The notes beneath the pieces are model-generated. The model was given only the letters and a program-made list of their open reading frames with translations, was not told where the DNA came from and searched no databases. The position numbers and the translations under genes are program-made. A stretch of 64,000 nt of DNA from Methanomicrobiales archaeon HGW-Methanomicrobiales-3 (GTDB taxonomy: Archaea > Halobacteriota > Methanomicrobia > Methanomicrobiales > Methanospirillaceae): assembly GCA_002839605.1 (NCBI GenBank), contig PGYK01000001.1, positions 124,001 through 188,000 on the forward strand, given 5' to 3'. Positions 25,722-31,346 of the stretch are shown here, in pieces. Numbering within the stretch: the first letter of the stretch is position 1; each line of letters begins with the position of its first letter.

Positions 25722-25774
25722 TGAGTGGAAAAATCAGCAAAAACTCAAATTCATATTTATGTATTTTCCTTCAT

Positions 25775-25795
25775 TTCCAGTGGAGAATAATTCGG
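25775..25795 (+). repeat. ORB-like half element in the hel308 upstream region
   Basis: TTCCAGTGGAGAATAATTCG matches the 5' half of the origin recognition box (TTCCAnTGGA) but lacks the GGGG end. It lies 64 bases upstream of a better copy and in the same orientation. It is weak evidence alone. Confidence 0.35.
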
Positions 25796-25838
25796 TTTTA
25801 AGGTTAGTATTGTCCAAAAGGACTGCAATGAGAGCGAA

Positions 25839-25858
25839 TTTGAGTGGAATTAAAGGGG
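25839..25858 (+). repeat. origin recognition box-like element at the hel308 promoter
   Basis: TTTGAGTGGAATTAAAGGGG, followed by TTCCCGGG, agrees at 15 of 20 positions with the strongest ORB beside orc1 (29780-29799), including the TGGAA core and the AAAGGGG end. It ends 19 bases before the hel308 start codon, where Orc1/Cdc6 binding could block or set transcription. Confidence 0.6.
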
Positions 25859-25877
25859 TTCCCGGGCGGGATGTGTC

Positions 25878-28076
25878 ATGTTAACTGAGACACTCCCAAT
25901 CCCTCAAAATCTCAGGGAACAGTATCTCGCAACCGGCATTGCCGAACTTTACCCTCCGCAGGCAGAGTGTGTACAGCGGGGGATGCTTGAGGGAAAGAAC
26001 CTGCTCGTTGCTATCCCCACCGCGAGCGGCAAGACCCTCATTGCCGAGATGGCGATGCACACAAAGATTGCCGGGGGTGGCAAGTGTCTGTACATCGTCC
26101 CGCTCAAGGCACTCGCAAGCGAGAAGTTCGATGAGTTCAGCGATAAAGGAGTCCGTGTTGGGATCGCAACCGGCGACTTCGACCGCCGCGACGATACGCT
26201 GGGCAGAAACGATATCATTGTTGCAACGAGCGAGAAGGTCGACTCACTCCTCCGGAACAACACCCGCTGGATCAGCGAGATAACGCTCCTTGTCATTGAT
26301 GAGATCCATCTCATCGATTCTGAGCACCGGGGACCCACGCTCGAGATGGTGATCGCCAAGCTGCGGTGCCGGAACCCGGCCATGCAGGTCATCGGCCTTT
26401 CGGCAACCATCGGCAACTCCGGGCTGCTTGCCGGCTGGCTGGATGCAGAACTGGTCACCAGCACCTGGCGGCCGGTCGACCTCAGGCAGGGGGTCTTCTG
26501 GAATGATCGCATCCATTTCCGCGAAGGGGAACGGGCGGTAAAACAGGTATCCAAAAATTACGAGGATCTCAACCTCTGTCTTGATACTATAGCCGAAGGC
26601 GGGCAGTGCCTGGTTTTCGTCTCCTCCCGCCGGAATGCCGAGGCGTTTGCCAAACGGGCTGCAGGAGCAATCAAGAGCGAGGATCCGTTACTGAAAGCCC
26701 TCGCTGATAAGCTCATGGCCTCCGCAGAGACCGAGATGGACAAGAGCCTTGCCCTCTGTGTTGAGAAAGGATCCGCGTTCCACCATGCCGGTTTAAGCCG
26801 GGATGAGCGAAAGATCGTTGAGGAGGGGTTCCGGAAAGGGCTGATCAAATCCATCTCCTCAACCCCCACGCTTGCAGCGGGATTGAACCTCCCCGCCCGC
26901 AGGGTTATTATCCGCGACTATCTCCGGTTCACTGCCGGGGAGGGGATGCAGCCGATCCCGGCGAGCGAGTACCACCAGATGGCAGGACGGGCCGGGCGTC
27001 CCCGGCTCGACCCGTATGGCGAAGCGGTACTCATCGCCAAGGACCAGGGGCAGGTCGAGGAGCTCTTCGATTATTATATCGATGCTCCATCCGAGGACGT
27101 CCACTCCAAAATCGCAGAACCAACGGCCCTGTACACGCATGTCCTCTCGCTTATCGCCTCGGGATTTGCCGGCACCCATGGCGAGCTTGCGGAGTTCATG
27201 AACCGGAGTTTCTATGTCCATGAGCACCGCCAGGGCCGGCTCATGCAGCGGGCAGTGGACTCCGCCTTACAGTTCCTCGTCACGGCAGAGATGGTGATGG
27301 AGGTTGGCGAGCATATCGGGGCAACCGCGTTTGGTTCGCTCGTTTCCCGGCTCTATATTGATCCCCGGAGTGCGGCGATGATAGTCTCCATGGTGAAGGA
27401 GAGAGAAGAGTATGCCGATATCGGACTTCTCCAGCTAATCTGCAGCACGCCTGATATGCCAAGGCTCTTTGTCCGAAATACTGATAGGCCCCAGCTCGAC
27501 CGGATGATTGATGAGCATGAAGAAGAGCTCTGGTTAGCCATGCCGCTGGAGGAGGATCTTGGGGAGGAATATTACCGGGCAATAAAAACAGCGATGCTCC
27601 TCTCTGACTGGACCGATGAGATGCCCGATGCAAAGATCTGCGAGCGCTATTCGGTTGGCCCCGGTGACGTCTTCGGCATGGTCGAGAGTGTCAACTGGCT
27701 GCTCCACGCAACCGCGGAGCTCTCGCGGATGTTTGCGCCCGCCTTCCACCAGCAGATCCATGATTACGAGACCTGCATGAAGAACGGGATCCGTCGCGAA
27801 CTCCTGCCGCTCGTGAAACTCCGGGGAATCGGACGTGTCCGTGCACGACGCCTCTTCAACAATTCCATAACCTCGCCTGAAGCGGTGCGTGCAGCGGGTA
27901 TCGAGTCCGTGACACGGATCATCGGCCGCGGGATCGCCGAGCAGATCTTTTCCCAGCTTGACGGGAAAAGAAAGATAAATCCGGAAAATACCGGACATGC
28001 AGCAAAGAAGGCTGAACCGGTGAGCAGGGATAAACCTGACAGGGCCGGACAGTCAACGCTCTCGCACTTCAGGTGA
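25878..28076 (+). CDS. hel308: Hel308-type DNA helicase
   Basis: A 732-residue superfamily 2 (Ski2-like) helicase that unwinds lagging strands at stalled forks. Motifs in order are YPPQ (Q motif, 25-28), PTASGKT (47-53), PLKALA, TGDFD, DEIH (141-144), [20 protein letters not shown] and [15 protein letters not shown]. The C-terminus has the ratchet and helix-hairpin-helix region ([13 protein letters not shown]) and ends in a short SHFR tail of the type seen in Hel308 that contacts RPA. Length is normal. The gene sits about 2 kb from the presumed origin and its promoter carries ORB-like sequence. Cgi121 follows closely. Confidence 0.95.
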
Positions 28077-28080
28077 TACC

Positions 28081-28605
28081 ATGTCGTCCACTCCCGCCAA
28101 AACCGATATCCGGGCTGCGTCCTGCACGATCACCCATCGGGCTGCATTCCTCCAGCAACTTCTCAACATCGCGTCAGATAATGATACGCATATCATCTGC
28201 TTCAATGCCGACATTCTTGCGGGAAGGGTACATGCAGCAACAGCGGTGAGGCTTGCATCACGGGCATTTGATGAGGGAACAAACATCTCCAAAACCCTCG
28301 AGATGGAGGCGCTCCTGTTTGCTGCCGGATCGCGCCAGTGTAATGTTGCCGCATCATTTGGTATCCATGAAGGTGAGAACCGTTTGTGGATATGCTGCAT
28401 GCCAGCTACGGGTAGTTGCTGGTCAGCACTCAATCAATTAGTTCAGTTTGACGATCTGGATCTGGATTTGATCGATAAGGAAAAACAGACGCGGCTGATG
28501 GAGATCTTTTCTATCTCCGCAGAAGAGCTGGAAGCAGCCGGTGGCCCCTCACGTATCATTGATCTGGTGCTGGAGCGCGTTGCCCTCCTCCAGGTTCTGC
28601 GATAG
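28081..28605 (+). CDS. cgi121: KEOPS complex subunit Cgi121
   Basis: A 174-residue protein. The family motif FNADILAGRVHAATAVRLASRAF is complete and is followed by EGTNISKTLEMEALLFAAGSRQ. Cgi121 binds the kinase Bud32 and tRNA in the KEOPS complex, which makes the universal t6A modification next to the tRNA anticodon. Its ribosome site, AGGTGAT, overlaps the end of hel308, so the two are likely translated from one message. The C-terminal 60 residues after LVQFDDLDL are a longer tail than in short homologues. Confidence 0.9.
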   Translation: MSSTPAKTDIRAASCTITHRAAFLQQLLNIASDNDTHIICFNADILAGRVHAATAVRLASRAFDEGTNISKTLEMEALLFAAGSRQCNVAASFGIHEGENRLWICCMPATGSCWSALNQLVQFDDLDLDLIDKEKQTRLMEIFSISAEELEAAGGPSRIIDLVLERVALLQVLR

Positions 28606-29189: not shown

Positions 29190-29573
29190 AACAGATGAGC
29201 TATTGCGTGTTATTCGTATTGAGAATTTGGTGAGGGCCGGGTTGCTGGTTTTTTTGAGGATTCCTGAATCCCGGAAACAATTTGGAACCAGACACTATTA
29301 TTTTGGAGTTCAAAAATTCACCAACAAAAGTGCAGGGCCCGGGGAGGTTTTATGGATTTTTGTATTCGGGATACCAAATTCAGGTAATGAGAAATAATGG
29401 GGCTAAAGATCGCTATCCAATACCTGTTCCATGACAGGCAAGTGAATTTTAAAATAACTGTGAATGTCACCATACGAAACCCTTCCTGGCAAGAAAAATC
29501 TCTATCCTTGAAAATTTTGGCAGTCAGACTTTCCCAGAGCCAGCTGTATGGGTGATCATCCTGCACGGACACC

Positions 29574-29593
29574 CCCCATCATTTCCTATGGAA
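29574..29593 (-). repeat. origin recognition box (minus strand)
   Basis: On the minus strand this reads TTCCATAGGAAATGATGGGG, then GGTGTCC. It agrees with the copy at 29780 at 15 of 20 positions and shares the trailing GTGTCC. It is oriented toward the opposite boxes. Confidence 0.75.
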
Positions 29594-29698
29594 TTCTTAT
29601 TTTCGTGCCTCCTTTGTTCGTTTTAGCGTTATTACAATAGTTCTTGGATAATTCCACTCAACAAACCTTTTTCATTTTGTCAAAATCATTTCGACTGG

Positions 29699-29731: not shown

Positions 29732-29779
29732 CTTCTTTCACAAAAATTATTTGGGAGTGAGTTACACTTCCCAAAACAC

Positions 29780-29799
29780 CTCCACTGGAAATAAAGGGG
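29780..29799 (+). repeat. origin recognition box (best copy)
   Basis: CTCCACTGGAAATAAAGGGG, continuing TGTCCCCC. It has the full layout of archaeal ORBs: TCCAnTGGAAA core, AA spacer and G-stretch. The copy at 29966 agrees at 17 of 20 positions. Confidence 0.8.
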
Positions 29800-29965
29800 T
29801 GTCCCCCTCACGGAAAAAAGATGTTATCGTCCGAAGGAAACGGGCGATCAGGCATTAAAAAACCGGATAAATCACCGGATTCCTGCTGGAATCAAAAAAA
29901 GAATAATAAATCGGGTATATCCCAATACATGAATATTTTCAAAATCAAAGCATAATTCGAGTGAT

Positions 29966-29985
29966 CTCCACAAGAAGTAAAGGGG
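29966..29985 (+). repeat. origin recognition box upstream of orc1/cdc6
   Basis: CTCCACAAGAAGTAAAGGGG, followed by TTAATC. Same strand as the copy at 29780. It ends 68 bases before the orc1 start, so the protein could also control its own gene from here. Confidence 0.75.
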
Positions 29986-30053
29986 TTAATCAACCGTGCA
30001 AACCGATCGTTTTTTAGTCTCATCACACTAATTCTCAGCTCCACTGTGTGATC

Positions 30054-31346
30054 ATGCCCGATACCGAAGACCCCTCAACCGGACTATTCAAAAAATATCT
30101 GACCAACAACCGGATCTTCAAGGACCGGGAAGTGCTCAGGCACTCGTACCGTCCGCAGATCCTGCCCCACCGGAAGCCCCAGATAGATGAAGTTGCCTCG
30201 ATCCTCGCCCCGTCTCTTCGAAATGAAACTCCTTCAAACATCCTTATCTACGGCAAGACCGGCACCGGCAAGACCGCGTGTGTCCGGTATGTGGGCTGGG
30301 AGCTTGAGAAAGCAAGCTCCAAGATGGGAACTCTCTGCCGTATTGTGCACCTGAACTGCGAGGTGATCGATACCCAGTACCGGGTCCTGGCCCAGATCGC
30401 CAAATGCCTTGACGTACCGGATGATCTGGCAAGTGACAAGACCCGCACCCATATCCCGATGACCGGGTGGCCGACAGATCAGGTGTATTCCGAGCTCAAG
30501 AACCAGCTGGAAGCCGGAGGCGGGGTCCTTGTCATCGTGCTTGATGAAATTGACAAACTGGTGAAAAAGAGCGGGGATGACACCCTCTATAACCTGACAC
30601 GGATCAATTCAGATCTCAAGAATTCCAAGGTCAGCATCATCGGGATCTCCAATGATCTGAGTTTCAAGGACTTCCTTGATCCCCGGGTTCTCTCCTCGCT
30701 CTCTGAGGAAGAGATTGTCTTCCCCCCCTACAACGCCCCGCAGCTCGTGGACATCCTTGCCCAGCGTGCTGATGGTGCTTTCATGCCCGGGGCCATTGCC
30801 GACGGTGTTATCCCGCTCTGTTCTGCGCTTGCCGCGCAGGAACATGGAGATGCACGGCGGGCGCTCGATCTCTTCAGGATCTCCGGAGAACTTGCCGATC
30901 GGGACGAGTCAGCTCAGGTGACCGAGGCGCACGTCAAGCTGGCACAGGCTAAGATCGAGACCGACAGCATGATCGAATGCATTTCCACGCTCCCCACGCA
31001 GAGCAAACTGATCCTCTTCTCGATGCTGATCCTGGAACAGCTGGGCCAGAATATCTTTACGAGCGGGGAAGTATCACGTATCTATCAGGATATTGCTCCA
31101 ACCATCGAACTTGATGTCCTCACCCACCGCAGGATCACCGATCTCATCTCCGAGCTGAACATGCTTGGCGTGATCAACACCCGGGTTGTCAGCCGCGGGC
31201 GGTATGGCAGGACCAAGGAGATGTGGTTTGACTCCAATACGGGCAAGATCCGTGAGGTGGTACTCAAGGACGCGCGCCTGAACGGGCTCAAGGACCTTGA
31301 CGTATCGCAGATGGAAGCCAAGTGGCTCAAGACCTGGTTCAGGTGA
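30054..31346 (+). CDS. orc1: Orc1/Cdc6 replication initiator
   Basis: A 430-residue AAA+ initiator that binds ORBs and loads the MCM helicase. Features are the N-terminal FKDREVLRHSYRPQILPHR, Walker A GKTGTGKT (67-74), Walker B VIVLDEIDKL (about 160), sensor 1 IIGISND, and sensor 2 within HGDARRALDLFR. A C-terminal winged helix begins around residue 300. An in-frame GTG six bases upstream is an alternative start; I chose the ATG at 30054. The neighbouring gene-free region with ORBs fits its role. Confidence 0.96.
   Translation: MPDTEDPSTGLFKKYLTNNRIFKDREVLRHSYRPQILPHRKPQIDEVASILAPSLRNETPSNILIYGKTGTGKTACVRYVGWELEKASSKMGTLCRIVHLNCEVIDTQYRVLAQIAKCLDVPDDLASDKTRTHIPMTGWPTDQVYSELKNQLEAGGGVLVIVLDEIDKLVKKSGDDTLYNLTRINSDLKNSKVSIIGISNDLSFKDFLDPRVLSSLSEEEIVFPPYNAPQLVDILAQRADGAFMPGAIADGVIPLCSALAAQEHGDARRALDLFRISGELADRDESAQVTEAHVKLAQAKIETDSMIECISTLPTQSKLILFSMLILEQLGQNIFTSGEVSRIYQDIAPTIELDVLTHRRITDLISELNMLGVINTRVVSRGRYGRTKEMWFDSNTGKIREVVLKDARLNGLKDLDVSQMEAKWLKTWFR

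What the first reader, a model, noticed from the sequence alone, without database searches (positions are those of the whole stretch)
25775..25858. Origin-box-like sequence in the hel308 promoter
A good box (25839-25858, 15 of 20 positions) ends 19 bases before the hel308 ATG, with a half-box at 25775 in the same direction. If Orc1/Cdc6 binds here, the initiator may directly control a fork-repair helicase, or the origin may extend over 4 kb with genes in it.
Basis: partly seen in the sequence, partly recalled or inferred. Interest (0 to 1): 0.65.

Follow-up and report, generated by a model that had tools for sequence, protein, structure and literature searches.

The report
Initiator-box operator before hel308
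In a whole order of methane-making archaea, the gene for a fork-repair helicase carries, just before its start, a pair of DNA boxes of the kind the chromosome's replication initiator recognises at the origin, so the initiator probably controls that repair gene directly.

Summary
An origin-box matrix built only from DNA upstream of orc1 ranks the two hel308 sites 4th and 5th of the 64-kb window, behind the three origin boxes. The same element lies before hel308 in 90 of 115 Methanomicrobiales genomes, 22 of 28 genera, against 58 of 5750 shuffles. It has two parts: a symmetric core and, 63-66 bp downstream, a directional half-box with G-string, usually centred 20 nt before the ATG. The two-part pattern occurs 24 times in 135 genomes, 23 of them before hel308.

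The extended-origin reading fails: where hel308 lies 19-43 kb from orc1 the pair is still at hel308 (7 of 7 genomes), and it is lost in lineages where hel308 stayed beside orc1. Outside the order 0 of 23 hel308 upstream regions have it.

Best explanation: an operator through which Orc1/Cdc6 (or its paralogue Orc2) regulates hel308, more likely by repression. Binding and sign of control are inferred, not shown. New variant of a known kind: initiators as transcription factors.

The parts
25774..25787 (.). Left box: symmetric core TTTCCAGTGGAGAA, no good G-string; orientation ambiguous
   Evidence: Matrix 13.0 at 25763-25788 on minus; core scored 18.8, centre 64 bp before the right-box centre
25836..25861 (+). 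Right box: GAATTTGAGTGGAATTAAAGGGGTTC, half-site TGGAA plus G-string GGGGT; first half-site degenerate
   Evidence: Matrix 12.6; right-half score 19.4, centre 34 nt before the ATG
25752..25766 (+). TATA-like ATATTTATGTATTTT, about 17-28 bp before the left-box centre, typical of this genus; predicted promoter element
   Evidence: Upstream TATA-like match at -92 to -81 of the right-box centre in 25 of 26 box-bearing genomes of the genus (matrix typed from recall)
25796..25819 (+). Weak second TATA-like stretch between the boxes (TTTTAAGG / TTGTCCAAAA)
   Evidence: stronger in many other genera, where it lies 25-32 bp before the right-box centre
25878..28076 (+). hel308, the gene presumed to be controlled (732 aa)
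28081..28605 (+). cgi121 (KEOPS subunit), 4 bp downstream, probably co-transcribed with hel308
   Evidence: co-transcription inferred from spacing
29571..29596 (-). Origin box 1 of oriC
   Evidence: Matrix 19.2
29777..29802 (+). Origin box 2 of oriC
   Evidence: Matrix 33.4
29963..29988 (+). Origin box 3, starts 91 nt before the orc1 ATG
   Evidence: Matrix 26.7
30054..31346 (+). orc1/cdc6, candidate trans-acting factor
   Evidence: NF001625, 593.2 bits over a cut-off of 501

Best explanation
The 156-bp spacer before hel308 is a promoter with a two-part Orc1/Cdc6 operator. The left box (symmetric core) and the right box (half-site plus G-string, ORB polarity towards the gene) lie 64 bp apart centre to centre, about six helical turns, so bound proteins would sit on one face of the DNA. 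TATA-like signals lie about 17-32 bp upstream of a box, which puts the expected transcription start at or beside a box. I propose that Orc1 (or the second Orc of the genome) occupies both boxes, covers the start site and closes the promoter, and that hel308, probably with cgi121, is freed when Orc1 is drawn away or changes nucleotide state after origin firing or at fork stress. Shown here: the boxes, their likeness to the origin boxes, their conservation, fixed geometry, near uniqueness to hel308 and independence from distance to oriC. Inferred: that an Orc protein binds, that it acts on transcription, that it represses, and what relieves it.
For: Independent matrix from orc1-upstream DNA of 57 genomes, 159 sites, finds the hel308 boxes. 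Right-half score of at least 8 in 90 of 115 hel308 promoters, 22 of 28 genera, against 58 of 5750 shuffles. Centre spacing 63-66 bp in 66 of 72 promoters with both boxes. Two-part pattern allowed to vary by 25 bp: 24 matches in 135 genomes, 23 before hel308, all 23 with span 85-87; reversed control 0. Pair stays with hel308 in 7 of 7 genomes with 19-43 kb between the genes on one contig, and the right box in 4 of 5 examined with the genes on different contigs. In the consensus of 22 genera the promoter is near flat outside the boxes and a TATA-like stretch. Eighty named GenBank loci give 63 of 80 (largely the same species, so not independent).
Against: No binding or expression data. The window's own right box lacks the first TTCC half-site and scores only 12.6 of about 39 bits. 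Missing or below threshold in 25 of 115 promoters, including 12 of 38 in the window's genus and 3 of 4 in family f3, so it is dispensable. The left box is not found in f5, f6 and g7. 0 of 23 hel308 upstream regions outside the order have it. TATA assignment is weak: mid TATA at -32 to -25 in only 41 of 90.
Confidence: 0.7

Rival explanations
1. Extended origin: the boxes are outlying ORBs of oriC, for loading or titrating Orc1, and lie before hel308 only because hel308 sits next to orc1.
For: In most genomes of the order hel308 is within about 11 kb of orc1, most strong ORB-like sites cluster in that block, and a third cluster lies on the other side of orc1 in f2-f6. Outside the order, where hel308 is generally not beside orc1, there is no box. 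An ORB-rich region downstream of an orc/cdc6 gene that seems to titrate the initiator is known in Haloarcula hispanica (PMC3936714, abstract and passages).
Against: Pair kept at hel308 19-43 kb away in 7 of 7 genomes and lost in lineages where hel308 stays beside orc1. Fixed distance to the ATG in most genera and fixed box spacing are promoter traits.
Confidence: 0.1
2. Small second origin: the inverted pair around a spacer is itself a start site that travels with hel308.
For: Inverted ORBs around an AT-rich element are the usual archaeal layout (PMC7776575, passage).
Against: The spacer is not consistently AT-rich: mean AT 0.41-0.53 in g5, g74, g77, g11, g16, g14. Left box absent in f5 and f6. 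Whether another orc gene lies beside the displaced copies was not looked for.
Confidence: 0.05
3. Same operator, other reader: the paralogue Orc2 (G000 C7:193288-194409), not Orc1, binds the degenerate boxes, like Sulfolobus Orc1-2, a damage-response regulator. (This overlaps the best explanation, which leaves the Orc open.)
For: Own genome has a second Orc/Cdc6 (257.4 bits), found in 132 of 135 order genomes. The right box deviates consistently from origin boxes in the first half-site.
Against: orc2's own upstream region has no box; presence of orc2 cannot track presence of the box, being nearly universal. Sulfolobus Orc1-2 uses ANTTTC, not an ORB (PMC9738581, passages).
Confidence: 0.2
4. 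Translation signal: the conserved AAGGGGT is a ribosome-binding site and the rest is incidental.
For: At the common position the G-string ends 4-5 nt before the ATG (g4, g5, g14).
Against: In the window's genus, g13, g66 and g76 the box is 12 or more nt further up (centre -32 to -72), and 10 of 26 genus genomes have a separate SD-like word after it. It does not explain TGGAA, the left core or the spacing. A double role where they coincide is not excluded.
Confidence: 0.05

Closest known systems
Archaeal origin recognition box (ORB) bound by Orc1/Cdc6
   Same: Same core TTCCASTGGAA, same G-string GGGGT, same spacing between them; the matrix from this order also finds 24-36-bit sites upstream of orc1 in 6 of 9 other genomes of the phylum tested
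   Different: Lies in a promoter, not at an origin; right box has one degenerate half-site, left box no G-string; follows hel308, not orc1
Sulfolobus islandicus Orc1-2, damage-response regulator
   Same: An Orc1/Cdc6 family protein acting on promoters of damage-response genes (PMC9738581, abstract opening and passages)
   Different: Non-initiator paralogue, asymmetric ANTTTC hexamer, several genes; here ORB-type boxes and, by the two-part pattern, one gene
DnaA as transcription factor (dnaA autoregulation, polA, uvrB, recN)
   Same: Initiator boxes reused as operators, including for DNA repair genes (PMC8203912, abstract and sections 10 and 14)
   Different: Bacterial; analogy of logic only, no homology of the element claimed
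[quoted passage not shown]
   Same: ORBs in a replication gene near cdc6 (PMC2643942, passage)
   Different: Inside the gene, other gene, no promoter geometry described in the passage seen
Initiator-titrating ORB region of Haloarcula hispanica oriC2
   Same: ORBs outside the origin near a cdc6 gene (PMC3936714, abstract passage)
   Different: Origin control; resembles the third cluster seen here in f2-f6 more than the hel308 boxes

Membership tests
ORB (Orc1/Cdc6 site) | Symmetric core TTCCASTGGAA | tested here: inconclusive
   Left box meets it but for one end base; right box of the window keeps only the second half-site. In f6 and g76 right boxes the whole core is present
ORB (Orc1/Cdc6 site) | G-string at fixed distance after the core | tested here: met
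   AAGGGGT in register in right boxes of 22 genera; left box lacks it
ORB (Orc1/Cdc6 site) | Bound by Orc1/Cdc6 | not testable with these tools
   Needs EMSA or ChIP
Replication origin | ORBs adjacent to an orc1/cdc6 gene | tested here: not met
   Pair kept with hel308 19-43 kb from orc1 in 7 of 7 genomes
Replication origin | AT-rich unwinding element between ORBs | tested here: not met
   Spacer AT mean 0.41 to 0.85 by genus, not consistently AT-rich
Sulfolobus Orc1-2 damage regulon | ANTTTC element in several damage-response promoters | not tested
   Motif is too short to test by counting; the two-part pattern is found before hel308 only, apart from one oriC hit
Initiator used as transcription factor | Initiator sites conserved in a promoter at fixed geometry, apart from the origin | tested here: met
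Initiator used as transcription factor | Transcription changes with initiator level | not testable with these tools
   Needs experiment

The most novel reading that the evidence does not exclude
The canonical replication initiator of Methanomicrobiales is a dedicated transcription switch for one gene: through an asymmetric two-box operator that splits the ORB into core (left) and half-site plus G-string (right), Orc1 reports its own free level or nucleotide state and pulses the fork-repair helicase Hel308 with each round of replication.
Probability: 0.4. Interest if true: 0.8.

Novelty: new variant of a known kind. Interest (0 to 1): 0.68.

Why it matters
How archaea tie repair to replication is little known outside Sulfolobus, where a non-initiator Orc paralogue does it through another motif. 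Here origin-type boxes sit in one repair promoter across an order, with natural experiments (displaced hel308, lineages that lost the boxes) that make the idea testable by EMSA, ChIP and reporter assays. Eight library searches listed no paper whose title or opening abstract reports ORBs in a hel308 promoter; subscription papers are mostly outside that library and most listed papers were not read.

Tried and rejected
Extended origin: rejected on displaced hel308. Chance match: rejected by shuffles. Ribosome-binding site alone: rejected because the box is kept where it is too far from the ATG. Wider regulon: the 20-base ORB pattern with up to 3 mismatches gives only 4-11 sites per genome in 30 genomes, in the listed rows mostly around orc1 (the list was cut), and the two-part pattern gives only hel308 plus one oriC site. 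Several solitary sites in the genus turned out to belong to dispersed repeats, not to repair promoters. Tracking presence of orc2 against presence of the box was uninformative because orc2 is in 132 of 135 genomes. No structure was predicted: it would not decide which Orc binds.

Cautions: the two-part pattern was written after seeing hel308 promoters, so hits at hel308 were expected; what informs is the near absence elsewhere and the narrow span. hel308 starts were extrapolated from alignments, so distances may be off where the true start differs (for example g6, G209). One search missed hel308 in G057 and one search missed orc1 in G007; those genomes were not replaced.

Full report
What is there. 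The spacer between a KH-domain gene (ends 25721) and hel308 (ATG 25878) holds TTTCCAGTGGAGAA at 25774 and TTTGAGTGGAATTAAAGGGGTT at 25839. hel308 is followed by cgi121, a moaB-like gene on the other strand, a spacer of about 860 bp and orc1/cdc6. The window lies in a genome of 2.59 Mb. Genomes given as 'same genus' match records titled Methanoregula (G017 contig of 233332 bases = UBA154), so the genus is Methanoregula in the database's sense. Family and genus labels f1, g1 and so on are those of the search tool.

Are they origin boxes? I built a 26-column matrix by iteration from up to 1000 bp upstream of orc1 in 57 of 60 related genomes (159 sites; consensus TTTCCACTGGAAACAAAGGGGTT). The seed was a recalled ORB; hel308 DNA was not used. 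The matrix ranks the window's sites: 29777 (33.4), 29963 (26.7), 29571 minus (19.2), then 25763 minus (13.0) and 25836 plus (12.6); the next is 9.2. It also finds 24-36-bit sites upstream of orc1 in 6 of 9 genomes outside the order; the other three gave 14.7, 2.5 and -1.8.

Conservation. hel308 promoters were read in 59 genomes including the own one and in 56 more of the order, ten of them chosen because hel308 is displaced or on another contig than orc1. The uniform count covers these 115 genomes of 28 genera. A right half-box (STGGAANNNAAGGGGT) scoring at least 8 bits is present in 90 of 115 and in 22 of 28 genera, against 58 of 5750 shuffled promoters. It is absent or below 8 in 25: 12 of 38 in the window's genus, 4 of 5 in g15, all 3 of g71, the one of g68, both of g72 (degenerate copies in place) and 3 of 4 in family f3. 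With one vote per genus, the promoter is near flat in information outside the boxes and a T-rich/A-rich TATA-like stretch.

Geometry. The right-box centre is 20-21 nt before the ATG in most genera and 32-41 in the window's genus, up to 72 in g66. The left core lies 63-66 bp upstream, centre to centre, in 66 of 72 promoters with both boxes, though a range of about 20-105 bp was searched. The right box has lost the C at -3 and accepts C or G at -2, while TGGAA and GGGGT are almost invariant; origin boxes keep both C's. According to a review, one Orc monomer binds one ORB with defined polarity, its AAA+ part touching the G-string (PMC7776575, passage); a half-site plus G-string is then a plausible one-monomer site (inference). 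The left box keeps the core without a good G-string and is missing in f5, f6 and g7.

Specific to hel308. The two-part pattern, with its gap free over 25 bp, has 24 matches in 135 genomes: 23 just before hel308 with spans of 85-87 only, one in an oriC (G122); the reversed control has none. It is an exact-match pattern, so it misses most degenerate copies (23 of 135 genomes hit).

Origin or promoter? In seven genomes hel308 and orc1 are 19-43 kb apart on one contig, in opposed orientation (G197, G203, G204, G205, G206, G224, G225). All seven keep the pair at hel308, spacing 64-66. Of five more examined with the genes on different contigs, four keep the right box (G173, G188, G199, G201), one does not (G218). 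Conversely the pair is lost in g71 and in part of the window's genus with hel308 still about 2-3 kb from orc1. Outside the order 0 of 23 upstream regions of about 0.6-1 kb reach 12 bits (best 2.1). So the element belongs to hel308, in this order.

How it may work. In the window's genus 25 of 26 box-bearing promoters have their best upstream TATA-like match 17-28 bp before the left-box centre; in other genera the match between the boxes is most often 25-32 bp before the right-box centre (30 of 64). With the usual 25-27 bp from TATA to start (recalled), a box lies at or beside the expected start, a place where binding usually represses. A spacing of about six turns would set two proteins on one face. 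Repression is therefore my first choice, activation from the left box second. Which Orc binds is open: the genome has two; orc2 is in 132 of 135 genomes and has no box of its own.

Compared with what is known. Initiators as transcription factors are known: DnaA, including repair genes (PMC8203912, abstract, sections 10 and 14), and Sulfolobus Orc1-2 through ANTTTC (PMC9738581, passages). ORBs within DP1 genes near cdc6 are reported for Thermococcales (PMC2643942, passage). I saw no report of ORBs as a conserved operator of hel308 in the searches named. Hence: new variant of a known kind. What is not shown is binding and effect.

Noticed in passing
L115-L131 (families f2-f6), for example L119:3080-3105 minus: A third ORB cluster lies between the aminotransferase gene downstream of orc1 and purA, mostly pointing back to orc1, in the other families; the window has no such site. 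It resembles the initiator-titrating region described for Haloarcula hispanica.
   Followed up: partly
G000 C5:97368 (L095:1965), C7:112098 (L096:1997); L099, L100, L104, L105, L106 (two copies): Methanoregula genomes carry a dispersed repeat of about 50 bp that begins with an ORB-like TCCASTGGAANNAAAGGGGTATA followed by a largely shared tail (L099 shares only the first part); none in the window besides the oriC box.
   Followed up: partly
L097 about 1960-2106, L098 about 1979-2118, L102 about 2010-2162: A second dispersed element of about 130-145 bp with inverted ends (CTGCCCCTGCCCGACCCCCC) encloses ORB-like sites, an inverted pair in L098 and L102; it may be a small mobile element or another Orc landing site.
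   Followed up: partly
G000 C7:193288-194409 (L246:1468-2589): Second Orc/Cdc6 paralogue, present in 132 of 135 genomes of the order, with further copies in many genomes of families f2, f4, f5 and f6.
   Followed up: partly
29963-29988: An origin box starts 91 nt before the orc1 ATG; in the genus this distance is 88-94 nt, which suggests that orc1 may regulate itself.
   Followed up: no
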